A program made the translations under genes and the position numbers. This document shows, in pieces, positions 1 through 20,927 of a DNA stretch of 42,730 nt. The stretch comes from Candidatus Vecturithrix granuli (lineage in GTDB: Bacteria; Moduliflexota; Moduliflexia; Moduliflexales; Moduliflexaceae). Under the pieces are notes generated by a model that saw nothing but the letters and a program-made list of their open reading frames with translations, was not told the DNA's origin and did not search any database. The stretch's first letter is position 1, and each line of letters starts with the position of its first letter. The stretch lies in NCBI GenBank assembly GCA_000739535.1, contig DF820464.1, forward strand, positions 374,864-417,593, written 5' to 3'.

Positions 1-65
1 AGAGCTAACACAGTTAAAAACAATGTATAATATCTGACTTTTTTATATGAGTGCGTAATGTGAGT
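1..65. repeat. Left copy of 65-bp terminal inverted repeat
   Basis: Bases 1-65 are the exact reverse complement of 42664-42728. Read outward from the contig, both copies begin ACTCACATTACGCACTCATA and run to the contig end. Identity stops abruptly at 65/66 on this side and 42663/42664 on the other, so this is a repeat boundary and not gradual homology. The left copy supplies the last codons and stop of the truncated drmB. The likeliest reading is the terminus of a multi-copy insertion element at which assembly stopped on both sides. A hairpin-type assembly artefact is the alternative. No transposase is visible because only 65 bp are present. Confidence 0.85.
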
Positions 66-1488
66 GAATTAAGATGAAACGAGGATTGAGACGCCGTATT
101 GTCTGTCCACGCCTTATACGCGCATTATTAAAATTTTCAATTTGTTTTTCGGCTCTTTTCAGAGTATCAGCATTTTCAAGCCATTCATCCAATTTGTCTG
201 TTCTGAATTCAAAGAACAGTCCCTCTCCTCGAACGATAATTGCTGGCAGCCAACGGATAGAATTACTTAATGCCAAATCTGCCCTTTTGGCCTGCAATGA
301 TCTGCCGTCCTCTGGACGCCACCGAGAAAAACCAACAAGCGCCCTGGTTTCGCGGAGTTTATGAATGAGTGAGATGCTTTTGAAAAATCGTTGAACAATG
401 TCTCCGTATTCAATACTCTTTTTATTAGTCACAAAGAAATCCTGATTATCACCGCCTAACTCGGCGATAATGGCCTCATATTCAGAAGTGCGATACAACT
501 CCTCAGAATCTTCGATTGGAGAGCCATCCGTTGAGGTTTCGTTGAGACGTTTCTCGGCTACGGCTAAAAGCTCTTCACAGTCAACCCCTTTCAGGTCTGC
601 GATTGTTTCAAAAACAATTCTGTTTAACTGACCATTTATACGATTTCTTACGAGAACATCCCAATTGTTATCAAGCACTTCAATTATTTTCCGATGAACA
701 GTCTTTTCCCATCGGGGTAAATAAATTGAACTTCGGATTTCAGAGAAATAAACATTTGAAGCGCCACGCTGAACAACCCGCAATGGCTCTCCACAGGATT
801 TGGCTTTATCGTCGATCTCGCCTAACCAGGGTCTATATCCTCCACATCGCTTGCTGATAGATTCTAACGAATCCTTATTGAATGCCCCTGCCAGCGTCCG
901 GTATGCGCCACACGTACAGGTTATTTTAATGCCAGCAAGACTACTTGAGCTTCTTCCCGATTGCAACCGTAATTGGCAATCGTTGTCACAGGTTCCCCCT
1001 TTATGAACCCACTCCATAAACGGAAAATCCTCAATATGCCCTTTTTCGCAAATCGCAATAAATCGTACAGGAATAAGAAAAGAACGTTTATTGGGTTTGG
1101 TTGAGTGACATGACAATCCTGGATAGTTTGGCCCTTCGCAGCGACAGCGGCTTCCATAGAGTGATAATTTCTTCATAAATCCGCATTTTGGACAATAATG
1201 CCACTGAGGAAAACGAACGCACGGAATTTTAAGATGAGGATTTTGAACACCAATTCCGGATTCTCTATAATCTGGAGGGAAACGGAATTCGCTTACATGC
1301 AGACGTTTCTCTAATCGTTCCTCATGAAAAATGAATTCAGTATAATGATCAGGTGCGTCTTGATATGTCGATTCCCAGGCATCTAAACCACATACCATCA
1401 GTGATTCGTCTCCGGGAAAGTTAATCATTTGCCCAATTCCCCAGGGAGAAATCAGTTGAGTACGACGGAGCGGCCTTTTTTGAAACAC
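43..1488 (-). CDS. drmB: DrmB-like DUF1998 protein, C-terminally truncated
   Basis: This is the DISARM-type DrmB partner of the DrmA helicase. The N-terminus has the family's opening (LRRTQLISPWGIGQMINFPG, then DESLMVCGLDAW), followed by Cys-rich putative zinc sites (CPKC at about 99-102, CRC at about 115-117, CTC at about 191-193). The start is a GTG 7 nt after a perfect AGGAGG that lies in the last codons of drmA; the genes are 1 nt apart, so translation is probably coupled. The protein ends after 481 aa at NPRFILIHS plus HYALI. The DUF1998 core normally continues from this RFxLLHTxAH motif for roughly 100 or more residues, so that domain is lost. The last six or seven residues come from the 65-bp terminal repeat, which points to disruption by an inserted element. 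The family call is from recalled motifs; the truncation point is directly visible. Confidence 0.8.
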   Translation of the reverse strand: MFQKRPLRRTQLISPWGIGQMINFPGDESLMVCGLDAWESTYQDAPDHYTEFIFHEERLEKRLHVSEFRFPPDYRESGIGVQNPHLKIPCVRFPQWHYCPKCGFMKKLSLYGSRCRCEGPNYPGLSCHSTKPNKRSFLIPVRFIAICEKGHIEDFPFMEWVHKGGTCDNDCQLRLQSGRSSSSLAGIKITCTCGAYRTLAGAFNKDSLESISKRCGGYRPWLGEIDDKAKSCGEPLRVVQRGASNVYFSEIRSSIYLPRWEKTVHRKIIEVLDNNWDVLVRNRINGQLNRIVFETIADLKGVDCEELLAVAEKRLNETSTDGSPIEDSEELYRTSEYEAIIAELGGDNQDFFVTNKKSIEYGDIVQRFFKSISLIHKLRETRALVGFSRWRPEDGRSLQAKRADLALSNSIRWLPAIIVRGEGLFFEFRTDKLDEWLENADTLKRAEKQIENFNNARIRRGQTIRRLNPRFILIHSHYALI

Positions 1489-1489
1489 G

Positions 1490-4400
1490 CTAATCCTCCT
1501 CTATATCATCTGAACATTCATATCGACTAACAACCACTGCTTCACAGGTCACATCGACATTTCGCATTGATGTTGGCGTTGACCAGGCTTTTTTATTCCA
1601 CTCATCATGAGGGCTGGTTCCGGCAGGATACATTAACGGTAATTCCTCTGTCGGTTTTGAAAAATCACCATACTTCGCTGGTGAATACCGCTCCCATTCA
1701 TCGAGTCGTTCTTTCAGCAGGTTCATCGTCAGGTTTGCTTCATCAGGATCAATGGCCTTAACTCGTTGCTCAAAAATACGAAAGATTTCCTGAGTAAGTT
1801 CATGTTGAGGGAGGGGAGTTGGCGAGGTTCGATTGTTTTTACTCCAATATCTGATAAACCCAACCAACAAAGCATGCAACGCCCTTTCTCTGACAGGAGC
1901 AGAAAATGGGGTAACGCTTGTTGGCTCAACCTGGCTGTAAATTGTCGAATGATACGACCAGAAATGTTCGTAATGTGAACGATCCCTCGGTTTTCCAGGA
2001 TTATAAATCACCACAACCAATCCAGGTCCTTCTTGCGAACGTCCGACTCGGCTGGTTGCTTGAATATATTCTGAGGTGGTTTTAGGCTGACCAATAACGG
2101 TCATTAAGCCTAAACGAGGGACATCAACGCCAACAGAAATCATATTTGTAGCCAGACAAATATCCACTGGATATTGTTTTTCTGTCCGGGGATACGAGAC
2201 TTCCAGAGCTTGAAGAGTATCCGGGATCTCACCACTTGACACTCGACTTGTCAATTCTATCGCATGGTTAATGAACCGTCTGGGATCGCCTTCATCGGTT
2301 TTATGTATATGACTTCGAATCCACACGGCATTTAAATATTCACGAATATCAGCACTGACAAGTGTTGCGGCATGGCCTAATTCTCGAAGACTATTGAAAT
2401 AATTGACAATTGTCCAGTAGGGGTCTCTCTCCTCCTCGGCATTCACTGTTGCAGATTTGCATCCTTGTAAAAGTGCTGAGATCACCCGAACCTGGGTTGT
2501 TGCATGAGAAGAATATCCTGTTGCATGGACGCCTACATAGATCCGACCTTTCGCGTCTTTATCTTCGTATGCAAAGAACGATTCACCGGCATTAATACAT
2601 TGAGGGGGAAATTGAAAGACATTTTCTCTGCCACAATTATACAGAGCATGTCCCTGTTCTCTGGCACGACTGATTGTGGCGGTCGACGCAACAATTTTAG
2701 GTCGAATATGAGGTTGAACTGTTCGGTTAACGCAGAGTTCAGAAATAAGCGTCTCGTAATGACCGACCATAGAACCTAATGGCCCTGAAATGAGATGAAG
2801 CTCATCCTGTATAATCAGTTCAGGAGGAGATAGATTCTCATCTTGTCGGAAACCAAACAATGAGCGGGCTTCAGACTTCCAGGGCAACATGGCAAATTTA
2901 TCAACCGTCCCAATAACAAGAGTTGGCGGCGATTCATAAATGTCTTCATCAATCACCAGAAGGGGAAGATTGAAAGATTTGTCCGAAAATTTGCACTCTT
3001 CATTATGGCATTGAAAGATCACAGTGGAAGGTTTTCGGGATGTTTGATAGCCCTGTACCCTGCAATGATTCCCCTTGACGTGAACAGGCCCCATTTTCGC
3101 CCCACACCAGGGACATTTTAACATAATGAACGGATTCTCCTTCGTGTCTCCTTGCCCCATCTTTTTGAGGACTCTTACAGCTTCATCCCGTCTATTAGAA
3201 CTCAGACTCTGGCCTACCCATAATCCAATCGTGATTCTCTCTGTCCCTAATTCGTGTTCATGCTCTTTTCGGATAAGCTCACAGGCACAAATCAGGGAGG
3301 CGGCTTGTTGATATTGTTGAGCGTTTAACAGGCGGAGTGTGTAACGCATCAACACAGTCGTCCCGCTGTCAAATGAGTCGCAGAGCCGTTTCAAAAAGAT
3401 GGTAAACGCTGTTAACCCCAAATACGCCTCTGTTTTTCCACCGCCTGTTGGAAACCAGATCAGGTCCACAAGCTTTCTTTCTTCGTCGTCAGGGGATATC
3501 ATTGATTGAAGATTCATCAGGATAAACGCGATCTGAAACGGTCGCCACGAACCGAGCTTTTTCGGCCATGTGTCAGGATGATGTATGTCAGGATATTCGA
3601 TAGGTGTAAGCGATAATGATTGATCCTCATTCACATTCCATTCGCGTAACTTAATACCATATCGTAATTGTTGCATCAGCATCGCTCTGTTCATAAGCTG
3701 GAATGCTTTTCTGACCTTCTGATCTGTCTTCAATAATGCGATTCCTCTCCTCATGCGGTTCAGACAGGTTTTACATTGTTGAATATGTCGTTCTGCGGTC
3801 TGGTGTAGCTCTTCAGAGAGTATTTCAGAGGCAATGGCTGTTTCCTGTTCAGTAATCCAGGCTTCGTATTTTTGACATAATGCAGAGAGATTTGATGTCA
3901 GAGAATCTGACTCACCATAGTCACTCATATCATACATCTTCAAGGTAATGTCATCAAATTTCGTAGGAAGAATGGGCTGTATTTCAAACGTTGGCAGAAT
4001 TTCAGCCTGTATTTCTGAAGCTCGTTGTTCACCAGGCTCTATGCCCCATGATGGAGCGCAACCGTGCCCAATAGCAAAGGTATGATGATGCCTGTAGAGA
4101 AGTCTTACCGATCTCTCATCCTCATTCTGGGATGTGGATTTGGATGAAGGATATGGGAGGAAGCAGGGAGTAGCTTCCTGGGCTCTCACTGTAAATCCCA
4201 CCTGAAAGAAGCAATCATCTGTGTCAACACGACTATTTGACGACTTTAGATTGTTAATGAGTGAGAACGTGTAAAGTTGACGAGTCTCATCAAATTGAGT
4301 GGTAGGCGTTCTGTTTGTAATGTTCAGGATAAGATCGATAGATTTGTTGTCTTTCTGTATGTCGAAGTTACATGAACGTTTCTTTTGGGTAGGGAGAACC

Positions 4401-4877
4401 GATCTGGGAATAGAGATTTCTGTATCAAGAGGCTCTCTCAGATACCCGCGTTTCGTGATTGGATTCCCGTCTTTATCAGGAACTGCAACATCACCAATTT
4501 TATAGCGGCCTGCTGTGATTGTAATACGAAATCCCTCTTTCGGAATATCAAGAAAACAACTTATCCCCATTGCTGAAGGTAAGTAACTATTGGCAAGATT
4601 CAAGGTGTCATCATCAATATCAGAACTCTCATCCAAACTTCCTGAATCACGTGTTTCAATATCGCCCTCTCCGTCAGAGACGATGATTTCAGCTTCCTCT
4701 AATAGCACATTAAGAACTTCTCTTTCAGTTTCACCAGTAGAATCGATTTCCTGAATCAGTGCTGTCTGTGGAAATAAAATTCCTGCTCCATATCTGAGCC
4801 GTGGAGGTTCAAGAAGAATCTCTTCGCCATTTTTTTGTAGAAGGGGAGAGGTAAAATGTAGATTGGATACTTTTCAC
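1490..4877 (-). CDS. drmA: DrmA-like DISARM helicase (start region frame-disrupted)
   Basis: Large SF2 helicase of the DrmA type, the core motor of DISARM-like anti-phage systems. Counting from the GTG at 4708 (1072 aa), it shows Walker A WFPTGGGKT (418-426), a zinc-ribbon-like insert (CPWC 532-535, CHNEEC 567-572), DEAH-like QDELHLISGPLGS (634-646), STAT (675-678) and motif VI ATSRVGRS (884-891). The 55 codons upstream of 4708 stay open and encode family-like sequence (EEILLEPPRLRYGAGILFP) but contain no ATG, GTG or TTG before the TGA of the preceding gene. In another frame a GTG at 4877 overlaps that TGA (GTGA). Dropping one A from the A7 run at 4830-4836 would join it to the drmA frame, giving 1128 aa starting MKSIQSTFYLSPSTKNGEE. 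I give the wide interval for that reason. A sequencing indel, slippage or a real frameshift are all possible. Confidence 0.8.
4830..4836 (-). other. A7 homopolymer at the predicted drmA frame switch
   Basis: Seven T on the plus strand (A7 in the mRNA sense, context ACAAAAAAATGG) lie between a GTG start that overlaps the previous stop codon and the open drmA frame. A net loss of one A makes a single continuous reading frame; with A7 the GTG frame ends after 22 codons. The geometry is visible. Whether it is an assembly error, transcriptional slippage or phase variation is inference. Confidence 0.6.
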
Positions 4878-7800
4878 ACTGCTAATCTTTTATTAATCTT
4901 CAGTAAATGTGATGGAATAGGAATATCCAATTCCCAAGTAATATTCATTGGCCTACTTCCTGAATGGGATATGTAATTGGCTGTTCCTAAGAAGTGGTAA
5001 GGAGCTGAAAACCCTTGTTCTCGTTTGTTTTCTCTGACAAATAATAGAATGATATTTCCTGTTTTACGATGATTGATGTACCTTTGTCCTGTAGAAGAGG
5101 TTTCAGAAGTTGTACTTTGCGACTGCCAATGAAAAAGTGTTTCATTAATAGCATAATCTTCATACATTGTGCTTGGGGAATAGTCTTTTTCAGATTTATT
5201 TAACGTAATCAGGAAAATATCTGTTTTTAAGTGTGGAAAATATCTGACGCCTTCCCGATGAGAAGGCATTGAGGTAAAAGAATAATAACCAAACGCACTT
5301 AATATTTCATCTCGTGTATAGCATGAATGAACATCTAAAACGCAAGGGTATGTTAATTCTGCTTCTTTTTCAATAAAATCGACATGATCATAATTGTATT
5401 GAAGTATTTCCTGTATTTCTTGAGATAAATTCCGATTTTTGAACAGTCTTTGGAATATGTCGCTAACCTGTGTATAATCATATTGCTGCAAGGGTTTTTG
5501 CCATATATCATAATAGAACATTGTGATATATTGTCGTTCTTCTTTAGAAAGCTGAGGTTCAATAATTGTAGGAAGCGATTTCCATTTCTTGAGTAAAAAG
5601 GTGATAAATTCTCGTGAATTGATATGCTGAATTCTTTTTAATCCTTTTGTTATAGTTTCTTTATCAGGATCATCAAATACCTTTAAAACTTTCGCTTCAT
5701 AACAAAGGGAAGACCAGGATGTTTTCGAATAAATGTCTGAGAGGCCAAGTTTGTAGAAGTTGAGGAAATTGGCAAGATTTAACGGTTGCCCACTATCATG
5801 TTCAAATGTTGCTATCTTTCTCACAAACTCTCGTGTGTTTGATGTGAAGTATTTCTGGATATTGTGAAGGATATATTCTTTTGAGCGTTTTTCTAATTTA
5901 ATGAAGCAACCGGCCGGTAGATTAGGAAAGTCCTGTTCGATCTCTTTTTTTATAGAGGTTTGGGTTCGTCCTAATAATGCTCGAAATTTGGCCTCAAATG
6001 AGTATTGTTTATGTGCTTGTCCAACAAAATCTAATACCGTTAAACACTCTTTCTCTTCGTGAATTCTCAATCCTCTTCCAAGCTGTTGCAAAAATACTGT
6101 CAGGCTCTCGGTAGGACGTAAAAACAAGACTGTATCAATAAAAGGAATATCCACACCTTCATTGTAAATATCTACGACAAAGATAAAGTTGATCTCTTTC
6201 TTGTGTAGTTTTCGCTGAATTTCTTGCCGTAGTTCTTTTGAAGAATTTCCGTGAAGACATTCAGAGGGAATCCCCTGCTTTTGGAAAAAACGAGCCATAT
6301 ATTCTGCATGGTTTACGCTCACACAAAACCCCAAACCATACACATCTAAAGGGTTCCTGACATATTTGTACAAAGCATTCACGACAAGTTGTGCACGCTG
6401 ATCATTTCCGGTCAACACCCGATCTAATTCTGTGGTATCATACCCACCTCTACTCCATGTAATATGACTAAAATCGATCGTATCAGTGACACCAAAATAT
6501 TGAAAGGGCACAAGTAATTTTCGCTGTATGGCTTCTGGAAGACGGATTTCAGCAGCAATTCGTCCGTCAAAATACTCATTGATAATGTCAGAACCATCCA
6601 TCCTTTCAGGAGTTGCTGTAAGACCTAATAAAACCTTCGGGTCATAATGCGTTAACAATTTTCGATACGATGGAGCGGCGGAATGATGGAATTCATCCAC
6701 AATAATAAAATCATAAAAATCTGGCTGTGTGATGTCTTGTAAGTTTTTTGAGTGGAAGCTTTGAATAGACACGAACAAATGATCTAATCGTTGAGGAATA
6801 TTGAAACCAACCAGCATATCGCCAAAATTATAGTCTTGCAATACCATTCGAAAGCAATCTATACTCTGTTTGAGAATTTCTTCTCTATGGGCAACAAACA
6901 ACAGGCGATTTGCCTGATGAGGATAATTCTTACAAAAACGTTTATAATCAAAAGCAGAAATAATTGTTTTCCCTGTTCCTGTAGCTGCTACAACGAGGTT
7001 TCTATAGTTTTGCCGAAGTGTTCTTTCTGCTTCTAATTTTTCAAGAATTTCTTCCTGATAGAGATACGGTGTGATGTTCACATTAAATGTTGATGTTGAA
7101 AAGGTATGATCTTGTCTTTCCGAAAGAAGAGCTTGTTTGAGTTGCGTCCTTTTCTCTTCATCATCAAGAGTGAAACAAACAAACTCTTTGTCATTCCAAT
7201 ATGTATGAAACGTTGCAACACATTTTTCAAAAATATCGGGAGAATCTTGGGCGGTAATTTTGATATTCCATTCTAAGCCACTTGTCATGGCCGCTCTTGA
7301 GATATTAGATGATCCGATATAGGCTGTTGAAAATGTCGTTTTTCTATGAAAAATGTATGCTTTTGCATGAAGTCGAGTTCGCTTGGTATCATAGGATACT
7401 TTTATTTCTGTATTGGGTAAGGAGGCTAAAAACTCTATCGCTTCATAATCTGAAGCCCCCATGTAAGATGTCGTGATAATTTTTAGAGTCCCATTTTTAT
7501 TTTTTGTAAACTCTTCTAATTCATCGGCAATAATACGGATGCCACTCCATTTCAGAAAAGACATCAGAAGAAAAATTTCATCACTTGAGAGGATTTCTTT
7601 TCGAATTTCGCTCGCCAAAGTTGGTTCAATAGGAGAACCCGTAAAGAGAGAACTTTCAGCAAGAGGAGTTACCGGTCGGACAAGCTTTTGTGGTTCCAGA
7701 GAAGGCATTTCTATCGTATTGATGATACTCAACAAAATTTCAGGGATTTGAGGAATGGTGAGTTTTTTGAGTTCATCTATAGCAATTTCATCTGCTAATA

Positions 7801-8032
7801 CATGAATAATTTTGTTACAAAGTTGTATCTGTTTATTCTCTTTATCTGTTCCTTTGATACCTTTGAGACCCGTGTTGATCGCCTTACATAGATAACGTGA
7901 TAGAATATAAGGAAGTTCTGCTTGATCGGCCTTTTCCTTTTCGACAAGGAGTTCATGACTGAACTCTTCTAATTGATAATGTAGGAGAGTATTAATTAAT
8001 TGCTCGTAAATTCCCGATCTAATTGGTACCAT
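4874..8032 (-). CDS. PLD-nuclease / DEAD-box helicase / DUF3427 protein
   Basis: A 1052-aa protein with three recognisable parts. An N-terminal phospholipase D-like domain carries one HKD-type motif (H222-A-K224 and GSSN 240-243). The middle is an SF2 helicase with Walker A AATGTGKT (349-356), DEFH (446-449), LTATPER (471-477) and a GRGLR motif VI. The C-terminus resembles DUF3427 and is probably a DNA-binding or nuclease-associated region. Length and order are normal for the COG3886/COG1061-type helicases common in defence islands. In DISARM the PLD protein DrmC is separate; here PLD sits on a helicase upstream of drmA and may take that place (inference). It starts 8 nt after the small upstream gene, with a short purine stretch (AAGAG) before ATG. 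Its TGA overlaps the proposed GTG of drmA. The frame looks intact. Confidence 0.85.
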   Translation of the reverse strand: MVPIRSGIYEQLINTLLHYQLEEFSHELLVEKEKADQAELPYILSRYLCKAINTGLKGIKGTDKENKQIQLCNKIIHVLADEIAIDELKKLTIPQIPEILLSIINTIEMPSLEPQKLVRPVTPLAESSLFTGSPIEPTLASEIRKEILSSDEIFLLMSFLKWSGIRIIADELEEFTKNKNGTLKIITTSYMGASDYEAIEFLASLPNTEIKVSYDTKRTRLHAKAYIFHRKTTFSTAYIGSSNISRAAMTSGLEWNIKITAQDSPDIFEKCVATFHTYWNDKEFVCFTLDDEEKRTQLKQALLSERQDHTFSTSTFNVNITPYLYQEEILEKLEAERTLRQNYRNLVVAATGTGKTIISAFDYKRFCKNYPHQANRLLFVAHREEILKQSIDCFRMVLQDYNFGDMLVGFNIPQRLDHLFVSIQSFHSKNLQDITQPDFYDFIIVDEFHHSAAPSYRKLLTHYDPKVLLGLTATPERMDGSDIINEYFDGRIAAEIRLPEAIQRKLLVPFQYFGVTDTIDFSHITWSRGGYDTTELDRVLTGNDQRAQLVVNALYKYVRNPLDVYGLGFCVSVNHAEYMARFFQKQGIPSECLHGNSSKELRQEIQRKLHKKEINFIFVVDIYNEGVDIPFIDTVLFLRPTESLTVFLQQLGRGLRIHEEKECLTVLDFVGQAHKQYSFEAKFRALLGRTQTSIKKEIEQDFPNLPAGCFIKLEKRSKEYILHNIQKYFTSNTREFVRKIATFEHDSGQPLNLANFLNFYKLGLSDIYSKTSWSSLCYEAKVLKVFDDPDKETITKGLKRIQHINSREFITFLLKKWKSLPTIIEPQLSKEERQYITMFYYDIWQKPLQQYDYTQVSDIFQRLFKNRNLSQEIQEILQYNYDHVDFIEKEAELTYPCVLDVHSCYTRDEILSAFGYYSFTSMPSHREGVRYFPHLKTDIFLITLNKSEKDYSPSTMYEDYAINETLFHWQSQSTTSETSSTGQRYINHRKTGNIILLFVRENKREQGFSAPYHFLGTANYISHSGSRPMNITWELDIPIPSHLLKINKRLAV

Positions 8033-8040
8033 AAAACTCT

Positions 8041-8292
8041 TTATTCAAGTATTTTGCATTCATATTCATCTAAATCGAATAATCTCTTCCAGTCCGTATG
8101 CGTTGATTTTAGCTCCTGATACATTGACTCTGCCTTAATAATCGGCGTTCGCCAGGAGAAGAAAATAAACAGAATTTCATCAAATACTTTGTCTTTATTA
8201 AAATGATGGTCAGGATTATATGCCTCTTTTAAGAGTTGATGTACTTTTTTGAGTTTATCGATCATGAACTGTCTCAAAGTATATTTTATCAC
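8041..8292 (-). CDS. Small protein resembling the N-terminus of endonuclease III-like glycosylases
   Basis: An 83-aa protein at the head of the defence operon. The segment LLKEAYNPDHH, then VFDEILFIFFSWRT and YQELKSTHTDWKRLF, follows the pattern of the first helices of Nth/HhH-GPD proteins (LKxxYG, DELIxxILSQxT, LxxxFxxW). It stops before the helix-hairpin-helix motif, catalytic Lys/Asp and Fe-S cysteines, so it cannot be a working glycosylase by itself. It could be a relic, or a small accessory protein keeping only the N-terminal subdomain. The GTG at 8292 follows AAGAAGG; ATG at 8265 (74 aa) is an alternative start and fits the promoter position better. Family assignment is from pattern memory and moderate. 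Confidence 0.55.
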   Translation of the reverse strand: MIKYTLRQFMIDKLKKVHQLLKEAYNPDHHFNKDKVFDEILFIFFSWRTPIIKAESMYQELKSTHTDWKRLFDLDEYECKILE

Positions 8293-8772: not shown

Positions 8773-9810
8773 CTATACAAAAAGCGGCTGCGTCAGAGGT
8801 TCAAGCTCCAGATCAGGCGTCTCGGCCAGAGTTTGGATGACTGTCTGGCGAATGTGCTCTAATTCTGTCTTCCCGTCAGGCGAGAAGGTGTTGAGGAGTA
8901 AACGTGAGATATGATTCGCCAGCCATTGCTGCACGAAGGGCAGAGGAATAGTCAGGCGTTTACAAGGCCAGATAATCATATCGGCGACGAGTTGAATCCG
9001 ATTCAACATGCCAAAGGTTGAGATCGGCTGTTCATTAAACGTACTGCGATTCACCACCCCGAACAACGCGCCATGATCCATCGCCTCGACTACCATCACG
9101 GCTTCACAGGCATGGCGGTAATAACAGGCATCAGACAGCCCCATTGTATTCGGCGATTTCAGAAAAACCGCTTCAGCGGTGGGGGCGCTGAAAAGTTTAT
9201 ACCCGGAGTGAAAATCCGGAAATTCATCGAAAACACTTGCAAATTCCAGGGCAAAGGGACGCCCGGTGATCACAGCGTGATACATGAGCGCGTCTAAAAG
9301 TATCCGGTCGCATAATTCTTCCAGTTCGCCGCGCAACAATCCCATTGGCCGGTGGCGGGACAGTCGTCGTCCCAGAATGAGAATCTGATCTGTATCCTTG
9401 CAGGTCCCGATATGATGGGCTGTCCGCACAAAATTCAGGAGTTCGTTTCCAAAATGGTCGCCATCCTGATCAACCACAGCAAAATATTTCCACGCTTTTT
9501 GTTTTAAAAGCAGGCGGACTCCTTGCGCCGCTCCTTGCAATTTTCCGCGATTCACCGCACTTACGCACCAGGAAACCTGATAGTCTCTGGCAAGCATTTC
9601 CGCGATGTTAGCCCCAGAGTGTTCTCCATCTACGCTCAAGCAGATACTGGCCGGATCATCTACTTGCTCGCAATACATTTGCACGGTATCCCGTAACAGT
9701 TCCTTGCCTTTTTGCACATCAAGCCCTTCAGGAAAATAGACCGGGATCACGATTCCGGTGTCGCGTCGCATAAGTGTGCGTATCTGTTCATAAGAATCGG
9801 CAAGCCGCAT
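8773..9810 (-). CDS. Putative GT-A-fold glycosyltransferase
   Basis: A 345-aa soluble protein with features of a family-2-like nucleotide-sugar transferase. An N-terminal strand (GIVIPVYFPEG) is followed by an acidic SVDGEHSG motif at about 59-66, a GKLQGAAQGVRLLL helix typical of the region before the DxD, and VVDQDGDHFGNEL (about 112-124) as the probable metal-binding motif. No membrane segments are seen. The donor and acceptor cannot be told from sequence, and there is no sugar operon beside it. ATG at 9810 is preceded by GAGGTG at good spacing. The gene is monocistronic as far as can be seen. Confidence 0.55.
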   Translation of the reverse strand: MRLADSYEQIRTLMRRDTGIVIPVYFPEGLDVQKGKELLRDTVQMYCEQVDDPASICLSVDGEHSGANIAEMLARDYQVSWCVSAVNRGKLQGAAQGVRLLLKQKAWKYFAVVDQDGDHFGNELLNFVRTAHHIGTCKDTDQILILGRRLSRHRPMGLLRGELEELCDRILLDALMYHAVITGRPFALEFASVFDEFPDFHSGYKLFSAPTAEAVFLKSPNTMGLSDACYYRHACEAVMVVEAMDHGALFGVVNRSTFNEQPISTFGMLNRIQLVADMIIWPCKRLTIPLPFVQQWLANHISRLLLNTFSPDGKTELEHIRQTVIQTLAETPDLELEPLTQPLFV

Positions 9811-17177: not shown

Positions 17178-17210
17178 CATCCCCGGATTTCCTGAAAAAA
17201 TCCGGGGATG
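17178..17210 (+). terminator. Intra-operon hairpin between binding protein 1 and permease 1
   Basis: Perfect 13-bp stem CATCCCCGGATTT / AAATCCGGGGATG with a 7-nt loop, 28 nt after the stop. No T-run follows. It could be a leaky attenuator or an mRNA 3'-end stabiliser that gives more binding protein than permease. Confidence 0.65.
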
Positions 17211-17327
17211 TGTTGATGAAGAATTTTCGAGTAAAGAGAGAAGACCGGTCAGTATTTGCGATCTGGGGACAAGCCGCAAAAGTTGTGCCTCTGCTGGGTT
17301 GATCTGGGGAAGGAATATGAATGACGA

Positions 17328-18083
17328 ATGGAACAGTATATTAACATCCTCAAATTTTTGATTACTAAAGGCGTCACTGTGACATTGCAAATTACGGCAG
17401 TGGCGTATGTCATCAGCCTCGTGGTTGGCTTGCTCATCGGGCTTGCTCGCACGGCAAAACACCCGGTTCTTCGGGGATGTGCCAGAGTGTATGTAGAGTT
17501 TATCAGGGCAATCCCGTTGCTTGTTCAACTGATTTATATTTATTTCGTGATTCAACCATTATTTCGAGATGCCCTGGAATCGATGATGATGTCAGATTTT
17601 TTTCTGTTCAAGCTGAACCTGTTCGGACTTTCTGTGAATGCCCTCATGCAAAGCTTGCTTGATCTGTTTGACCGGAGTGCGTTGTTTGTGAGTGGCGTTC
17701 TGACCCTGGTCATCTGTTTTGCCGCCTATATGGCCGAAATTTTTCGCGCCGGAATTCAATCGATTGATTATGGGCAAGTTGAAGCCGCACTCTCTTCCGG
17801 GTTAACCATGGCTCAGACGATGCGGCACGTCGTGCTTCCCCAGGCGATCCGCCGGGTTGTCCCGCCTTTAGGCAATGAATTCGTTGCCATGCTCAAGGAT
17901 TCATCCATTATTTCTATCATTGGTCTGCGAGAATTGACCAGGGCCGGACGAGAAATTGTCTCCTCAACATTTCTCACCTTTGAAGTATGGACCATGGTCG
18001 CCATTTTGTATTTTTTGATTACATCATCCTTTTCGTTTGTGCTGAACAGACTCGAACAGCGATTCAAATACGATAAACGCTAA
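17328..18083 (+). CDS. Polar amino-acid ABC transporter permease 1
   Basis: A 251-aa inner-membrane permease of the HisMQ/GlnP family. The N-terminal GVTVTLQITAVAYVISLVVG segment, the EFIRAIPLLVQLIYIYF motif and the cytoplasmic coupling loop (EAALSSGLTMAQTMRHVVLP, then QAIRRVVPPLGNEF) that contacts the ATPase are all present. It is about 30 residues longer than typical members because of an extra stretch at about 85-115 (ALESMMMSDFFLFKLNLFG). Ribosome binding is weak: AAGGAA lies about 14 nt upstream, closer to an out-of-frame ATG at 17318. The ATPase is four genes downstream. Confidence 0.9.
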   Translation: MEQYINILKFLITKGVTVTLQITAVAYVISLVVGLLIGLARTAKHPVLRGCARVYVEFIRAIPLLVQLIYIYFVIQPLFRDALESMMMSDFFLFKLNLFGLSVNALMQSLLDLFDRSALFVSGVLTLVICFAAYMAEIFRAGIQSIDYGQVEAALSSGLTMAQTMRHVVLPQAIRRVVPPLGNEFVAMLKDSSIISIIGLRELTRAGREIVSSTFLTFEVWTMVAILYFLITSSFSFVLNRLEQRFKYDKR

Positions 18084-18273
18084 ATGGATGTCACGCGAAA
18101 TGGTATTTGAATCAGAACGGCGAAAGAGAATTGTATCCTGTCGCCGATATCCTTACGATTACTATGATTTGAAGCATAGGGGGTGGTAGCCCGGAGAACG
18201 TGGTGTTTTTTTGAACTGAAAGGTGTATTCATCATTAGTAACAATTACTTTTTGAGTCAGGGAGGATGCTTCT

Positions 18274-19095
18274 ATGAAAAAACGTGTTGTATTCGCAGTA
18301 GTTATGCTTTTGTCTTTTGGTTTTTCGCTCTGTGGCTATGCTTCCGATATCGAGCTTGCCAAAAAATCGACCCTGGAAGCTATTTTGCAGCGAGGAGAAT
18401 TGCTGGTAGGGATGGAAGCCGGCTATATGCCCTTTGAAATGGCTGATAAAAAAGGCGACTTTATCGGATTTGACATTGATGTCGCCAAAGAAATGGCGAA
18501 AGCTATGGGCGTGAAAGTGTCGTTTGTCAACACCGCCTGGGATGGGATTATTCCTGCGTTGGTGACCGAAAAGTTTGATATTATTATCAGTGGAATGACC
18601 GTGACCCAGGAAAGAAATCTCAAGATCAATTTCGCAGATCCGTATATTGTGATCGGCCAGACGATTTTATTGAATAAAAAACATGAAGGCAAGGTCACGT
18701 CATATAAAGATCTGAACGATCCTCAATATACCGTCACTTCGAAACTTGGCACGACCGGAGAACAGGCCATTAAACGCTTGATGCCAAAAGCAAACTACAA
18801 ATCCTTTGAAGTGCAGGCTGAAGCTATGTTAGAAGTTGTAAACGGCAATGCCGATGCCTTTGTGTACGATCTCCCAATCTGTGTCACCTTTATGGCGCAG
18901 TATGGCGCTGGTAAACTCGTGTTCTTGGATGAACCGTTTACTTATGAACCTCTGGCGTGGGCTGTGAGAAAAGGCGATCCTGATTTCCTGAATTGGCTGA
19001 ATAACTTCTTGAGTCAGCTCAAAAATGATGGTCGTTATGAAATTATCTATAATAAATGGATCAAAACGACCGATTGGATCAAAGATATTGAATAA
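18274..19095 (+). CDS. Polar amino-acid ABC transporter substrate-binding protein 2
   Basis: A 273-aa periplasmic binding protein homologous to the one at 16389 but clearly diverged. Signal peptide of about 24 residues (MKKRVVFAVVMLLSFGFSLC, then GYA). Then GELLVGMEAGYMPFEM, GFDIDVAKEMAKAMG, NTAWDGIIPALVTEKFD and YTVTSKLGTTGEQA. The binding-site region differs (GYMPFE versus ATFPPFE), so its ligand may differ. GGAGG lies 8 nt before ATG. It is followed 96 bp later by permease 2 and then the ATPase. Confidence 0.9.
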   Translation: MKKRVVFAVVMLLSFGFSLCGYASDIELAKKSTLEAILQRGELLVGMEAGYMPFEMADKKGDFIGFDIDVAKEMAKAMGVKVSFVNTAWDGIIPALVTEKFDIIISGMTVTQERNLKINFADPYIVIGQTILLNKKHEGKVTSYKDLNDPQYTVTSKLGTTGEQAIKRLMPKANYKSFEVQAEAMLEVVNGNADAFVYDLPICVTFMAQYGAGKLVFLDEPFTYEPLAWAVRKGDPDFLNWLNNFLSQLKNDGRYEIIYNKWIKTTDWIKDIE

Positions 19096-19191
19096 GTTGT
19101 TTGAGTATCTTGTATAAAGAGAGACAGGCTGGTAGATGAACGTTGTTTTGTTTGCCGGCCTTGTCTTATATTTACGCATTCGGAAATTTCC

Positions 19192-20199
19192 ATGCAATTA
19201 TCATCAAATCTGCAACGCTTTCATAATAGAACGACCTATTATTGCTGGGTTGGCGTTTTTTTTCTGTTGATTGGAGGGTTTATTGCTCTCCTCTATATTG
19301 CTACACTGCAAATTGACTATCTCTGGGCCTGGTATCGCATTCCTCAATACTTTGTGTATCAAGAAAACATTGAGATACGAGCAGAAATTGAAGGGGAGGT
19401 CGAAACCATCACGATGAATGGTGATCAAGCTGTTGTTGTCGTGGTAGGCAGCGATGGTCAAGAAACATACACCGTCCCGTCTGAGGATATTCGAGTAGAT
19501 GAAGGCGATATGATTTATGCGGGCGATGTATTGGCCACTTATAAAGAATGGCGTCCTGGCATTTTACTTCAAGGACTTGGCACGACGTTAAAAGCCAGTG
19601 TCTATGCCATTGTGTTTGGCATTGTGCTTGGATTGATCGGAGGAATTGCCCGTATTTCGCCGAACCCGGCCTTAAAGTGGTCGGCGATAACCTACATTGA
19701 AATAGTGCGAGGTTCGCCGCTGCTTGTGCAACTCCTGATCTGGTATTTTGTGATTGGTACCATGGTGAACACGATCCTCGCCAATTATAAGCTGGGTCAG
19801 ATTTCAGCAATGGGCTACGGTATTGCCGCATTGTCTTTTTTTGTCGGGGCATACGTCACAGAAATTGTGCGCGCTGGAATTCAATCTATCCATCGCGGGC
19901 AAATCGAAGCGTCGCGCTCGTTAGGCATGAGTTATGCCCAGTCCATGCGCTATGTGATTTTACCCCAGGCCATGCGTCGTATTCTTCCGCCACTTGCCGG
20001 GCAGTTTATCAGCCTGATCAAAGATTCTTCGCTGTTGGGTGTGATCGCTGTGCGAGAATTGACAAAAGCGACGCGTGAAGTGGTCACGACCAGTCTGCAA
20101 GCCTTTGAACTCTACTTTGTCTGCGCCATCCTCTATCTGGTATTAACGTTTACGCTCTCCATGCTGACGCAATATTTGGAGCGGAGGTTAGCCTCGTGA
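19192..20199 (+). CDS. Polar amino-acid ABC permease 2 with inserted barrel-sandwich-like domain
   Basis: A 335-aa inner-membrane permease of the HisMQ family. TM1 is at about 18-40, followed by the usual [12 protein letters not shown] approach. Residues 58-120 then form a soluble insert ([43 protein letters not shown]) whose alternating strands and EGDxIxAGDVLA turn resemble barrel-sandwich/lipoyl-like or HlyD hairpin domains. The canonical core follows ([37 protein letters not shown], and the coupling loop [20 protein letters not shown]). The insert should face the periplasm and could touch the binding protein (inference). Its TGA overlaps the GTG of the ATPase gene. Confidence 0.88.
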
Positions 20200-20927
20200 T
20201 TCATGTTCGCAATATTTCGAAAACCTATCATTTTCCGCATACCGTTCACGCCCTTGTAAATGTCTCGACCAATGTTGAACCAGGAGAAGTGGTTGTGGTG
20301 ATTGGCCCATCGGGTTCCGGAAAAAGCACGCTTATCCGCTGCCTGAACCGGTTGGAAATCGCTGATGAAGGGCACATTTTCATTGATGAGATCGATGTGC
20401 TCGATCCAAAGACCAACATCAATAAATTACGCGCAGAAGTCGGGATGGTGTTTCAATCCTTCAATTTATTTCCTCATAAAACCGCGCTTGAAAATATTAC
20501 TCTGGCGCAGCAAGTGGTTCGGAAGCGATCGTTCAAAGAAGCCCGTGAAAATGCGATGGCCTTACTGCACAAGGTCGGAATTCCCGATAAAGCCAATGTC
20601 TATCCAGATCATCTTTCCGGGGGACAGCAGCAGCGGATTGCCATCGCCCGCGCTCTGGCGATGAACCCGAAAGTCATGCTATTTGATGAACCAACCTCGG
20701 CGCTTGACCCAGAAATGATCGGCGGAGTGTTAGATGTCATGAAAACCCTGGCGCGCGAGGGCATGACGATGGTGGTGGTCACGCATGAAATGGGCTTTGC
20801 TCGTGAGGTGGCTGACCGCGTGATGTTTATGGATGAAGGCAAAATTCTGGAAGTCGGCCCACCGGAACATTTTTTCACAAACCCCACTCACGACCGCACA
20901 AAACTGTTTTTGAGTCAGATTCTATAG
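20196..20927 (+). CDS. glnQ: Polar amino-acid ABC transporter ATP-binding protein
   Basis: A 243-aa ATPase of the GlnQ/HisP type with Walker [11 protein letters not shown]-loop [10 protein letters not shown], signature LSGGQQQR, Walker [14 protein letters not shown] and the H-loop [13 protein letters not shown] at 20196 overlaps the upstream stop by 4 nt and has GGAGG 8 nt before it, so it is translationally coupled to permease 2. It is the only ATPase in the cluster and is likely shared by both permeases and both binding proteins. The gene symbol follows family usage, not proven glutamine transport. Confidence 0.93.

What the first reader, a model, noticed from the sequence alone, without database searches (positions are those of the whole stretch)
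1490..8292. DISARM-like operon with a PLD-helicase in place of drmC and an EndoIII-like fragment at its head
The gene order EndoIII-like fragment, PLD/DEAD/DUF3427 protein, DrmA, DrmB is not the described class 1 (drmD-drmMI-drmA-drmB-drmC) or class 2 (drmE-drmA-drmB-drmC-drmMII) DISARM as I recall them. No methyltransferase is present in the visible part. PLD and a second helicase share one chain. This may be a methylase-independent DrmAB variant, or a remnant whose methylase lay beyond the left end.
Basis: partly seen in the sequence, partly recalled or inferred. Interest (0 to 1): 0.75.

Follow-up and report, generated by a model that had tools for sequence, protein, structure and literature searches.

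The report
Broken DISARM remnant beside restriction enzyme
A bacterial anti-phage operon (DISARM) has lost its front genes, which were replaced by an intact enzyme that probably cuts methylated foreign DNA, and what is left of DISARM is damaged at both ends, so this looks like a decaying chimera and not a new defence system.

Summary

(1) The "PLD/DEAD/DUF3427" protein is complete and SauUSI-like: a type IV, modification-dependent restriction enzyme, not a DrmC substitute (PADLOC mREase_IV 1.7e-239; SauUSI structure 7clg aligns over residues 141-1025).

(2) DrmA homology starts 27 nt after that gene's stop codon; about 20 N-terminal residues and the start codon are missing.

(3) The 83-aa ORF is the first part of an HhH-GPD (EndoIII-like) glycosylase, cut off where the SauUSI-like gene starts.

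(4) DrmB is split by an insertion sequence (46 copies of its end in the genome, 8-bp target duplication); its DUF1998 end lies across the assembly gap.

In 105 related drmA loci the usual neighbours are a C5-methyltransferase (often with Vsr or HhH-GPD), DrmE and a NERD-helicase. A SauUSI-like or PLD neighbour occurs in two. The host genome has no detectable C5-methyltransferase.

Best reading: a class-2-like DISARM whose front was replaced by a SauUSI-like gene and whose drmB was hit by an IS. The restriction enzyme probably works alone; DrmAB probably does not.

The parts
8041..8292 (-). N-terminal fragment of an HhH-GPD (EndoIII-like) glycosylase gene, truncated just before the SauUSI-like gene
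   Evidence: Hit to the 275-aa L085 protein, which has PF00730; E 1.1e-7 with a profile that does not contain it
4874..8032 (-). Complete SauUSI-like type IV restriction enzyme: PLD nuclease, SF2 motor, DUF3427 region
   Evidence: PADLOC mREase_IV 1.7e-239; 7clg 1.4e-81; catalytic motifs present; both ends align with intact relatives
4847..4873 (-). Junction between the SauUSI-like stop codon and the first recognisable DrmA sequence
   Evidence: L077 DrmA aligns from residue 21 at window 4846, 2.4e-10; no ATG/GTG/TTG in frame before 4708
1490..4846 (-). drmA without its first ~20 codons; first usable start is GTG at 4708
   Evidence: NCBIfam DISARM_DrmAS above cut-off, profile matched from position 82; N-terminal alignment
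65..1488 (-). 5' part of drmB, up to the insertion sequence; the DUF1998/MZB end lies outside the window across an N-gap (L009 17888-18328)
   Evidence: DrmB_fam profile 4-481 of 604; C-terminal piece has PF09369 at 9.5e-11
65..72 (.). Target-site duplication TGAATTAA of the insertion sequence
   Evidence: Same 8 bp on the far flank in L009
1..64 (-). One end of a high-copy insertion sequence; the interior is an assembly gap
   Evidence: End sequence at 46 sites in the genome, 0 for the reversed control; inverted partner end and N-gap

Best explanation
The locus is a chimera. An ancestral class-2-like DISARM operon carried a C5-cytosine methyltransferase, an HhH-GPD glycosylase, DrmE, a NERD-helicase, DrmA and DrmB. 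The stretch from inside the glycosylase gene to about codon 21 of drmA was replaced by a complete gene for a SauUSI-like type IV restriction enzyme, and an insertion sequence split drmB. Shown by sequence: the truncations, junctions, IS with target duplication, and family assignments. Inferred: the ancestral gene order (from relatives) and the order of events. Working today, most likely: the SauUSI-like protein acts alone. Its C-terminal domain binds 5-methyl- or 5-hydroxymethylcytosine in incoming DNA, the SF2 motor translocates, and the PLD dimer shreds the DNA; its host has no detectable C5-methyltransferase, so its own DNA would be spared. DrmAB, without an intact DrmA start and with DrmB split before its zinc domain, is probably inactive.
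For: SauUSI family by PADLOC, PDB and motifs, mechanism from PMC7913695. drmA start missing. HhH-GPD fragment. IS in drmB with duplication and the missing end beyond. Window DrmA sits in an 11-row clade (support 98) whose intact members have C5-methyltransferase, DrmE and mostly a NERD-helicase. SauUSI-like genes and drmA are rarely neighbours elsewhere. No PF00145 protein in the host genome, control rings in 10 of 14 genomes. Base composition differs between the SauUSI-like gene (GC3 29.5%) and drmA (39.1%).
Against: DrmA helicase motifs are intact and the rest of its frame is open, so decay is recent or an internal start is used. The IS may not be fixed in the population. No close relative with an intact version of this locus was found. 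A methyl-dependent specificity is inferred from family, not tested. The genome is 93.8% complete, so a missed methyltransferase is possible.
Confidence: 0.83

Rival explanations
1. A functional methylase-free DISARM variant in which the SauUSI-like PLD-helicase takes the place of DrmC and works with DrmAB.
For: Same strand, short spacing and the same reading frame across the join; DrmA helicase motifs intact; DrmAB has been proposed to use alternative PLD nucleases (PMC9142583); L081 and L237 have a SauUSI-like or PLD gene near a drmAB locus.
Against: drmA has no start codon or conserved N-terminus; drmB is split; the pairing is not conserved; in L081 and L237 the complete DISARM set with its methyltransferase is present and the PLD gene lies outside it.
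Confidence: 0.06
2. Assembly artefact: the SauUSI-like gene and drmA come from different genomes or places and were joined wrongly.
For: Estimated contamination 10.75%; every IS copy examined is an assembly gap; base composition changes at the join; truncated genes on both sides of the SauUSI-like gene.
Against: The join lies in ungapped sequence. The two drmB pieces carry matching target duplications and continue one gene, so that scaffold link is right. The HhH-GPD fragment on the far side belongs to the same kind of operon as drmA, which a random join would not give.
Confidence: 0.08
3. Ordinary defence-island neighbours: the SauUSI-like gene inserted next to a DrmAB that was already a fragment, with no replacement event.
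For: Defence genes cluster; another DrmAB locus (L079, complete genome) also has a front-truncated drmA with a methyltransferase/Vsr/HNH set upstream, and no SauUSI-like gene.
Against: The HhH-GPD fragment and the drmA fragment are cut within 8 and 27 nt of the two ends of the SauUSI-like gene, which suggests one event.
Confidence: 0.03

Closest known systems
SauUSI, type IV restriction enzyme of Staphylococcus aureus (PDB 7clg; PMC7913695)
   Same: Single chain with PLD nuclease (HxK), SF2 motor and C-terminal recognition region; alignment over residues 141-1025
   Different: Longer N-terminus (~120 residues), low overall identity, the E of HxK(x)4E is not conserved (His at that place); cleavage and specificity untested
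DISARM class 2 (DrmE, DrmA, DrmB, DrmC, DrmMII)
   Same: DrmA and DrmB families met; nearest relatives carry a DrmMII-like methyltransferase and a protein with DrmE_C
   Different: Here no methyltransferase, DrmE or DrmC; drmA and drmB are damaged. In the nearest relatives a NERD-helicase stands where no DrmC is found
DISARM class 1 (DrmD, DrmMI, DrmA, DrmB, DrmC)
   Same: DrmA and DrmB
   Different: DrmA is of the short type (NCBIfam DrmAS, not DrmAL) and falls outside the DrmD-linked part of the tree
ARMADA, BRIGADE, TALON, Druantia (PMC12458937)
   Different: There the helicase and DUF1998 are normally one chain; here they are two genes as in DISARM and the best profiles are DrmA and DrmB

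Membership tests
Type IV restriction enzyme, SauUSI family | PLD nuclease, SF2 helicase motor and DUF3427-type C-terminus in one chain | tested here: met
   Pfam, PADLOC mREase_IV, PDB 7clg
Type IV restriction enzyme, SauUSI family | Catalytic HxK and helicase motifs intact | tested here: met
   HxK 222-224, GSSN 240, Walker A 350, DEFH 446, TATPER 472, QQLGRGLR 649
Type IV restriction enzyme, SauUSI family | Cuts only DNA with modified cytosine | not testable with these tools
   Needs biochemistry; absence of a host C5-methyltransferase is consistent
DISARM | DrmA helicase with separate DrmB (DUF1998) gene | tested here: met
   NCBIfam and PADLOC; DUF1998/MZB on the far side of the gap
DISARM | Intact drmA and drmB reading frames | tested here: not met
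   drmA without start and N-terminus; drmB split by an IS
[quoted passage not shown]
   No C5-methyltransferase in window, left flank or held genome; adenine methyltransferases elsewhere in the genome were not surveyed
DISARM class 2 | DrmE | tested here: not met
   No DrmE relative in window or left flank; only a chance-level match, E 0.84
DISARM | DrmC PLD nuclease | tested here: not met
   The only PLD protein is SauUSI-like; its DrmC match is 9.2e-5 against 1.7e-239 for mREase_IV
ARMADA/Druantia | Helicase fused to OB-CON-DUF1998 | tested here: not met
   Helicase and DUF1998 are separate genes, best profiles DrmA and DrmB; the BrxA-like insertion was not examined

The most novel reading that the evidence does not exclude
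DrmAB (translated from an internal start, with drmB intact in part of the population) works with the SauUSI-like enzyme: a DISARM that dropped its methyltransferase and switched from sparing methylated DNA to destroying it.
Probability: 0.05. Interest if true: 0.65.

Novelty: new member of a known kind. Interest (0 to 1): 0.22.

Why it matters
It removes a candidate "new DISARM variant" that profile searches would report as DrmA+DrmB+PLD. It also gives a clear example of how defence loci turn over: a system protected by cytosine methylation loses its methyltransferase and is overwritten by an enzyme of a family that attacks methylated cytosine. The survey behind it shows that many class-2-like DISARM loci carry a NERD-helicase and no recognisable DrmC, which would merit its own study.

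Tried and rejected

EndoIII assignment of the 83-aa ORF through Pfam, NCBIfam, PDB, plasmids or 289 genomes gave nothing; it succeeded only through drmA loci.

Close relatives of the host (same family and order) have neither gene at the thresholds used, so there is no direct before/after comparison.

Idea that the missing drmA N-terminus sits in another frame or nearby: tblastn found only residues 21 onward.

Idea that the methylase lay just beyond the left end: rejected for C5 enzymes.

Hits of the PLD-helicase near Streptomyces and other actinobacterial drmA are 1,550-1,850-aa proteins in the position of drmD, taken as class 1 loci, not SauUSI-like; this was judged from size, place and weak E-values (1e-10 to 1e-15), not from a family search.

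Ofir 2018 (PMC5739279) is not held, so the class definitions rest on PMC9142583, PMC12458937 and general knowledge.

No structure prediction was run: the sequence match to 7clg made it unnecessary.

Full report
WHAT IS THERE. The window lies in G000:C20:374864-417593, an 8.38 Mb assembly in 21 contigs. On the minus strand four reading frames follow each other: 83 aa (8041-8292), 1052 aa (4874-8032), 1072 aa (1490-4708) and 481 aa (43-1488). The third and fourth are DrmA and DrmB by PADLOC (2.3e-231; 6.3e-33) and by NCBIfam, above the curated cut-offs (DISARM_DrmAS 955.8/950; DrmB_fam 274.8/240). The second has PLDc_2, ResIII, Helicase_C and DUF3427. The stated span 1490-8292 leaves out drmB.

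THE PLD-HELICASE IS A SAUUSI-LIKE ENZYME. PADLOC assigns it to mREase_IV at 1.7e-239, far above the DrmC hit at 9e-5. The best solved relative is SauUSI (7clg), aligned from residue 141 to 1025 at 1.4e-81. SauUSI has a PLD nuclease with an HxK motif, an SF2 motor and a target-recognition domain for 5mC/5hmC (PMC7913695). The HxK (222-224), GSSN (240), Walker A (350), DEFH (446), TATPER (472) and QQLGRGLR (649) motifs are present. Both ends align with intact relatives at 51-52% identity. It is a complete enzyme by itself. Its relatives in 12 genomes and 4 plasmids have no drmA in the DNA held around them, although a few of those contigs are short; the same holds for 6 viral contigs.

DRMA HAS LOST ITS START. 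The frame is open back to the stop codon of the SauUSI-like gene but contains no ATG, GTG or TTG before 4708. Conserved DrmA sequence (NGEEILLEPPRLRYGAGILFPQ) begins in that apparent spacer. An intact relative (L077) aligns from its residue 21 onward at window 4846 (75% identity, 2.4e-10); its first 20 residues, with the conserved ELIGPDP stretch, are absent.

THE 83-AA ORF IS A TRUNCATED HHH-GPD GENE. General libraries are blank. It hits a 275-aa protein in L085 beside a C5-methyltransferase just downstream of drmB, and that protein carries PF00730 HhH-GPD. A profile built from such proteins without this ORF finds it at 1.1e-7. By eye the similarity runs nearly to its last residues, 8 nt before the SauUSI-like start. 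In L083 the order is methyltransferase, HhH-GPD, two genes in the DrmE position, NERD-helicase, DrmA, DrmB.

DRMB IS SPLIT. DrmB matches only profile positions 4-481 of 604. It ends at CTCACATTACGCACTCATATAAAAAAGT, which occurs 46 times in the genome against 0 for the reversed control. Every copy examined borders an N-gap, and most show the inverted partner end on the other side. In drmB both flanks carry TGAATTAA; all 14 copies with both ends visible have a 7-8 bp duplication. Beyond the gap drmB continues with LIHTFAHILINQLSFECGYGSSSLRERIY and an MZB/DUF1998 domain at 9.5e-11.

WHAT RELATIVES LOOK LIKE. I examined 105 drmA loci: 80 from species genomes, 17 viral contigs and 8 others; at least two pairs are the same or nearly the same DNA. 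A tree places the window DrmA in an 11-row clade (support 98) inside a larger clade in which a DrmE relative is usual. Nearest members have a C5-methyltransferase (DrmMII-like, 6.8e-91 in L078), often Vsr, an 850-930-aa protein with DrmE_C (PF24957), and in most a NERD plus UvrD-like helicase protein directly before drmA. A C5-methyltransferase was recognised in 64 of 105 loci. Among the 48 with the DrmE-type cluster it was recognised in 36, with weaker matches in 4 more; some of the rest are cut by contig ends. A SauUSI-like or PLD protein was near drmA in only two (L081, L237), in both cases beside a complete set with its methyltransferase.

NO C5-METHYLTRANSFERASE IN THE HOST. No PF00145 protein was found in the assembly, while the same search rings in 10 of 14 control genomes. 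That fits a host that tolerates a 5mC-dependent nuclease. Completeness is 93.8%, so this is not absolute. Adenine methyltransferases elsewhere in the genome were not surveyed.

INTERPRETATION. The simplest history is a class-2-like DISARM whose front, from inside the glycosylase gene to codon 21 of drmA, was replaced by a SauUSI-like gene, with an IS insertion in drmB. Composition supports different origins: GC3 is 29.5% in the SauUSI-like gene, 39.1% in drmA and 53.8% in the neighbouring 345-aa gene. Shown: the fragments, junctions, IS and families. Inferred: the ancestral order and the steps; one replacement and several deletions cannot be told apart, nor whether the IS came before or after. 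The enzyme probably restricts DNA carrying 5mC or 5hmC alone; DrmAB is probably dead or dying. A working hybrid is not excluded, because DrmAB has been proposed to use alternative PLD nucleases (PMC9142583), but I give it about 5%.

LIMITS. The assembly has 10.75% estimated contamination; without reads the join at 4847-4873 could be artificial, although it lies in ungapped sequence. Restriction specificity is inferred from family. The gene clusters in the survey come from single-linkage BLAST and longest-ORF gene calls, so counts are approximate.

Noticed in passing
L077, L078, L080, L081, L083, L085, L088, L115, L237 and other drmA loci: In class-2-like DISARM loci a NERD plus UvrD-like helicase protein (~580 aa) lies directly upstream of drmA in 29 of 48 loci with the DrmE-type cluster (37 of 103 drmA loci), and a DrmC-type PLD hit occurs in only one of the 48. 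This looks like a DISARM subtype with a NERD-helicase instead of DrmC; a search of open papers for DISARM together with NERD found only two, and the passages read in one of them (PMC12458937) give NERD to TALON, not DISARM.
   Followed up: partly
L085, L083, L122, L148, L105 (HhH-GPD); L078, L079, L088 and others (Vsr): The C5-methyltransferases of these DISARM loci are accompanied either by Vsr or by an HhH-GPD glycosylase, sometimes fused or overlapping (L105, L085), as if for repair of T:G mismatches from deaminated 5mC.
   Followed up: partly
L079:7162-14064: Candidatus Brocadia pituitae (complete genome) has a drmA lacking its first ~395 residues, directly after Vsr, a C5-methyltransferase and two small ORFs: another front-truncated DrmAB.
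   Followed up: partly
L081:890-3250 and 17202-20360: A Firmicutes genome bin has SauUSI-like genes on both sides of a complete DISARM-like locus with its own C5-methyltransferase; a 5mC-dependent nuclease beside a 5mC-making enzyme needs compatible specificities.
   Followed up: no
window 1-64 and the right end (G000:C20:417528-417555); 46 sites genome-wide: A very high-copy insertion sequence with ends CTCACATTACGCA.../CTCACTTTACGCA... and a 7-8 bp AT-rich target duplication; the interior is an assembly gap at all copies checked, and an IS end lies at each end of the window.
   Followed up: partly
window 8773-9810: 345-aa minus-strand protein upstream of the fragment has no convincing Pfam or NCBIfam match.
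   Followed up: no
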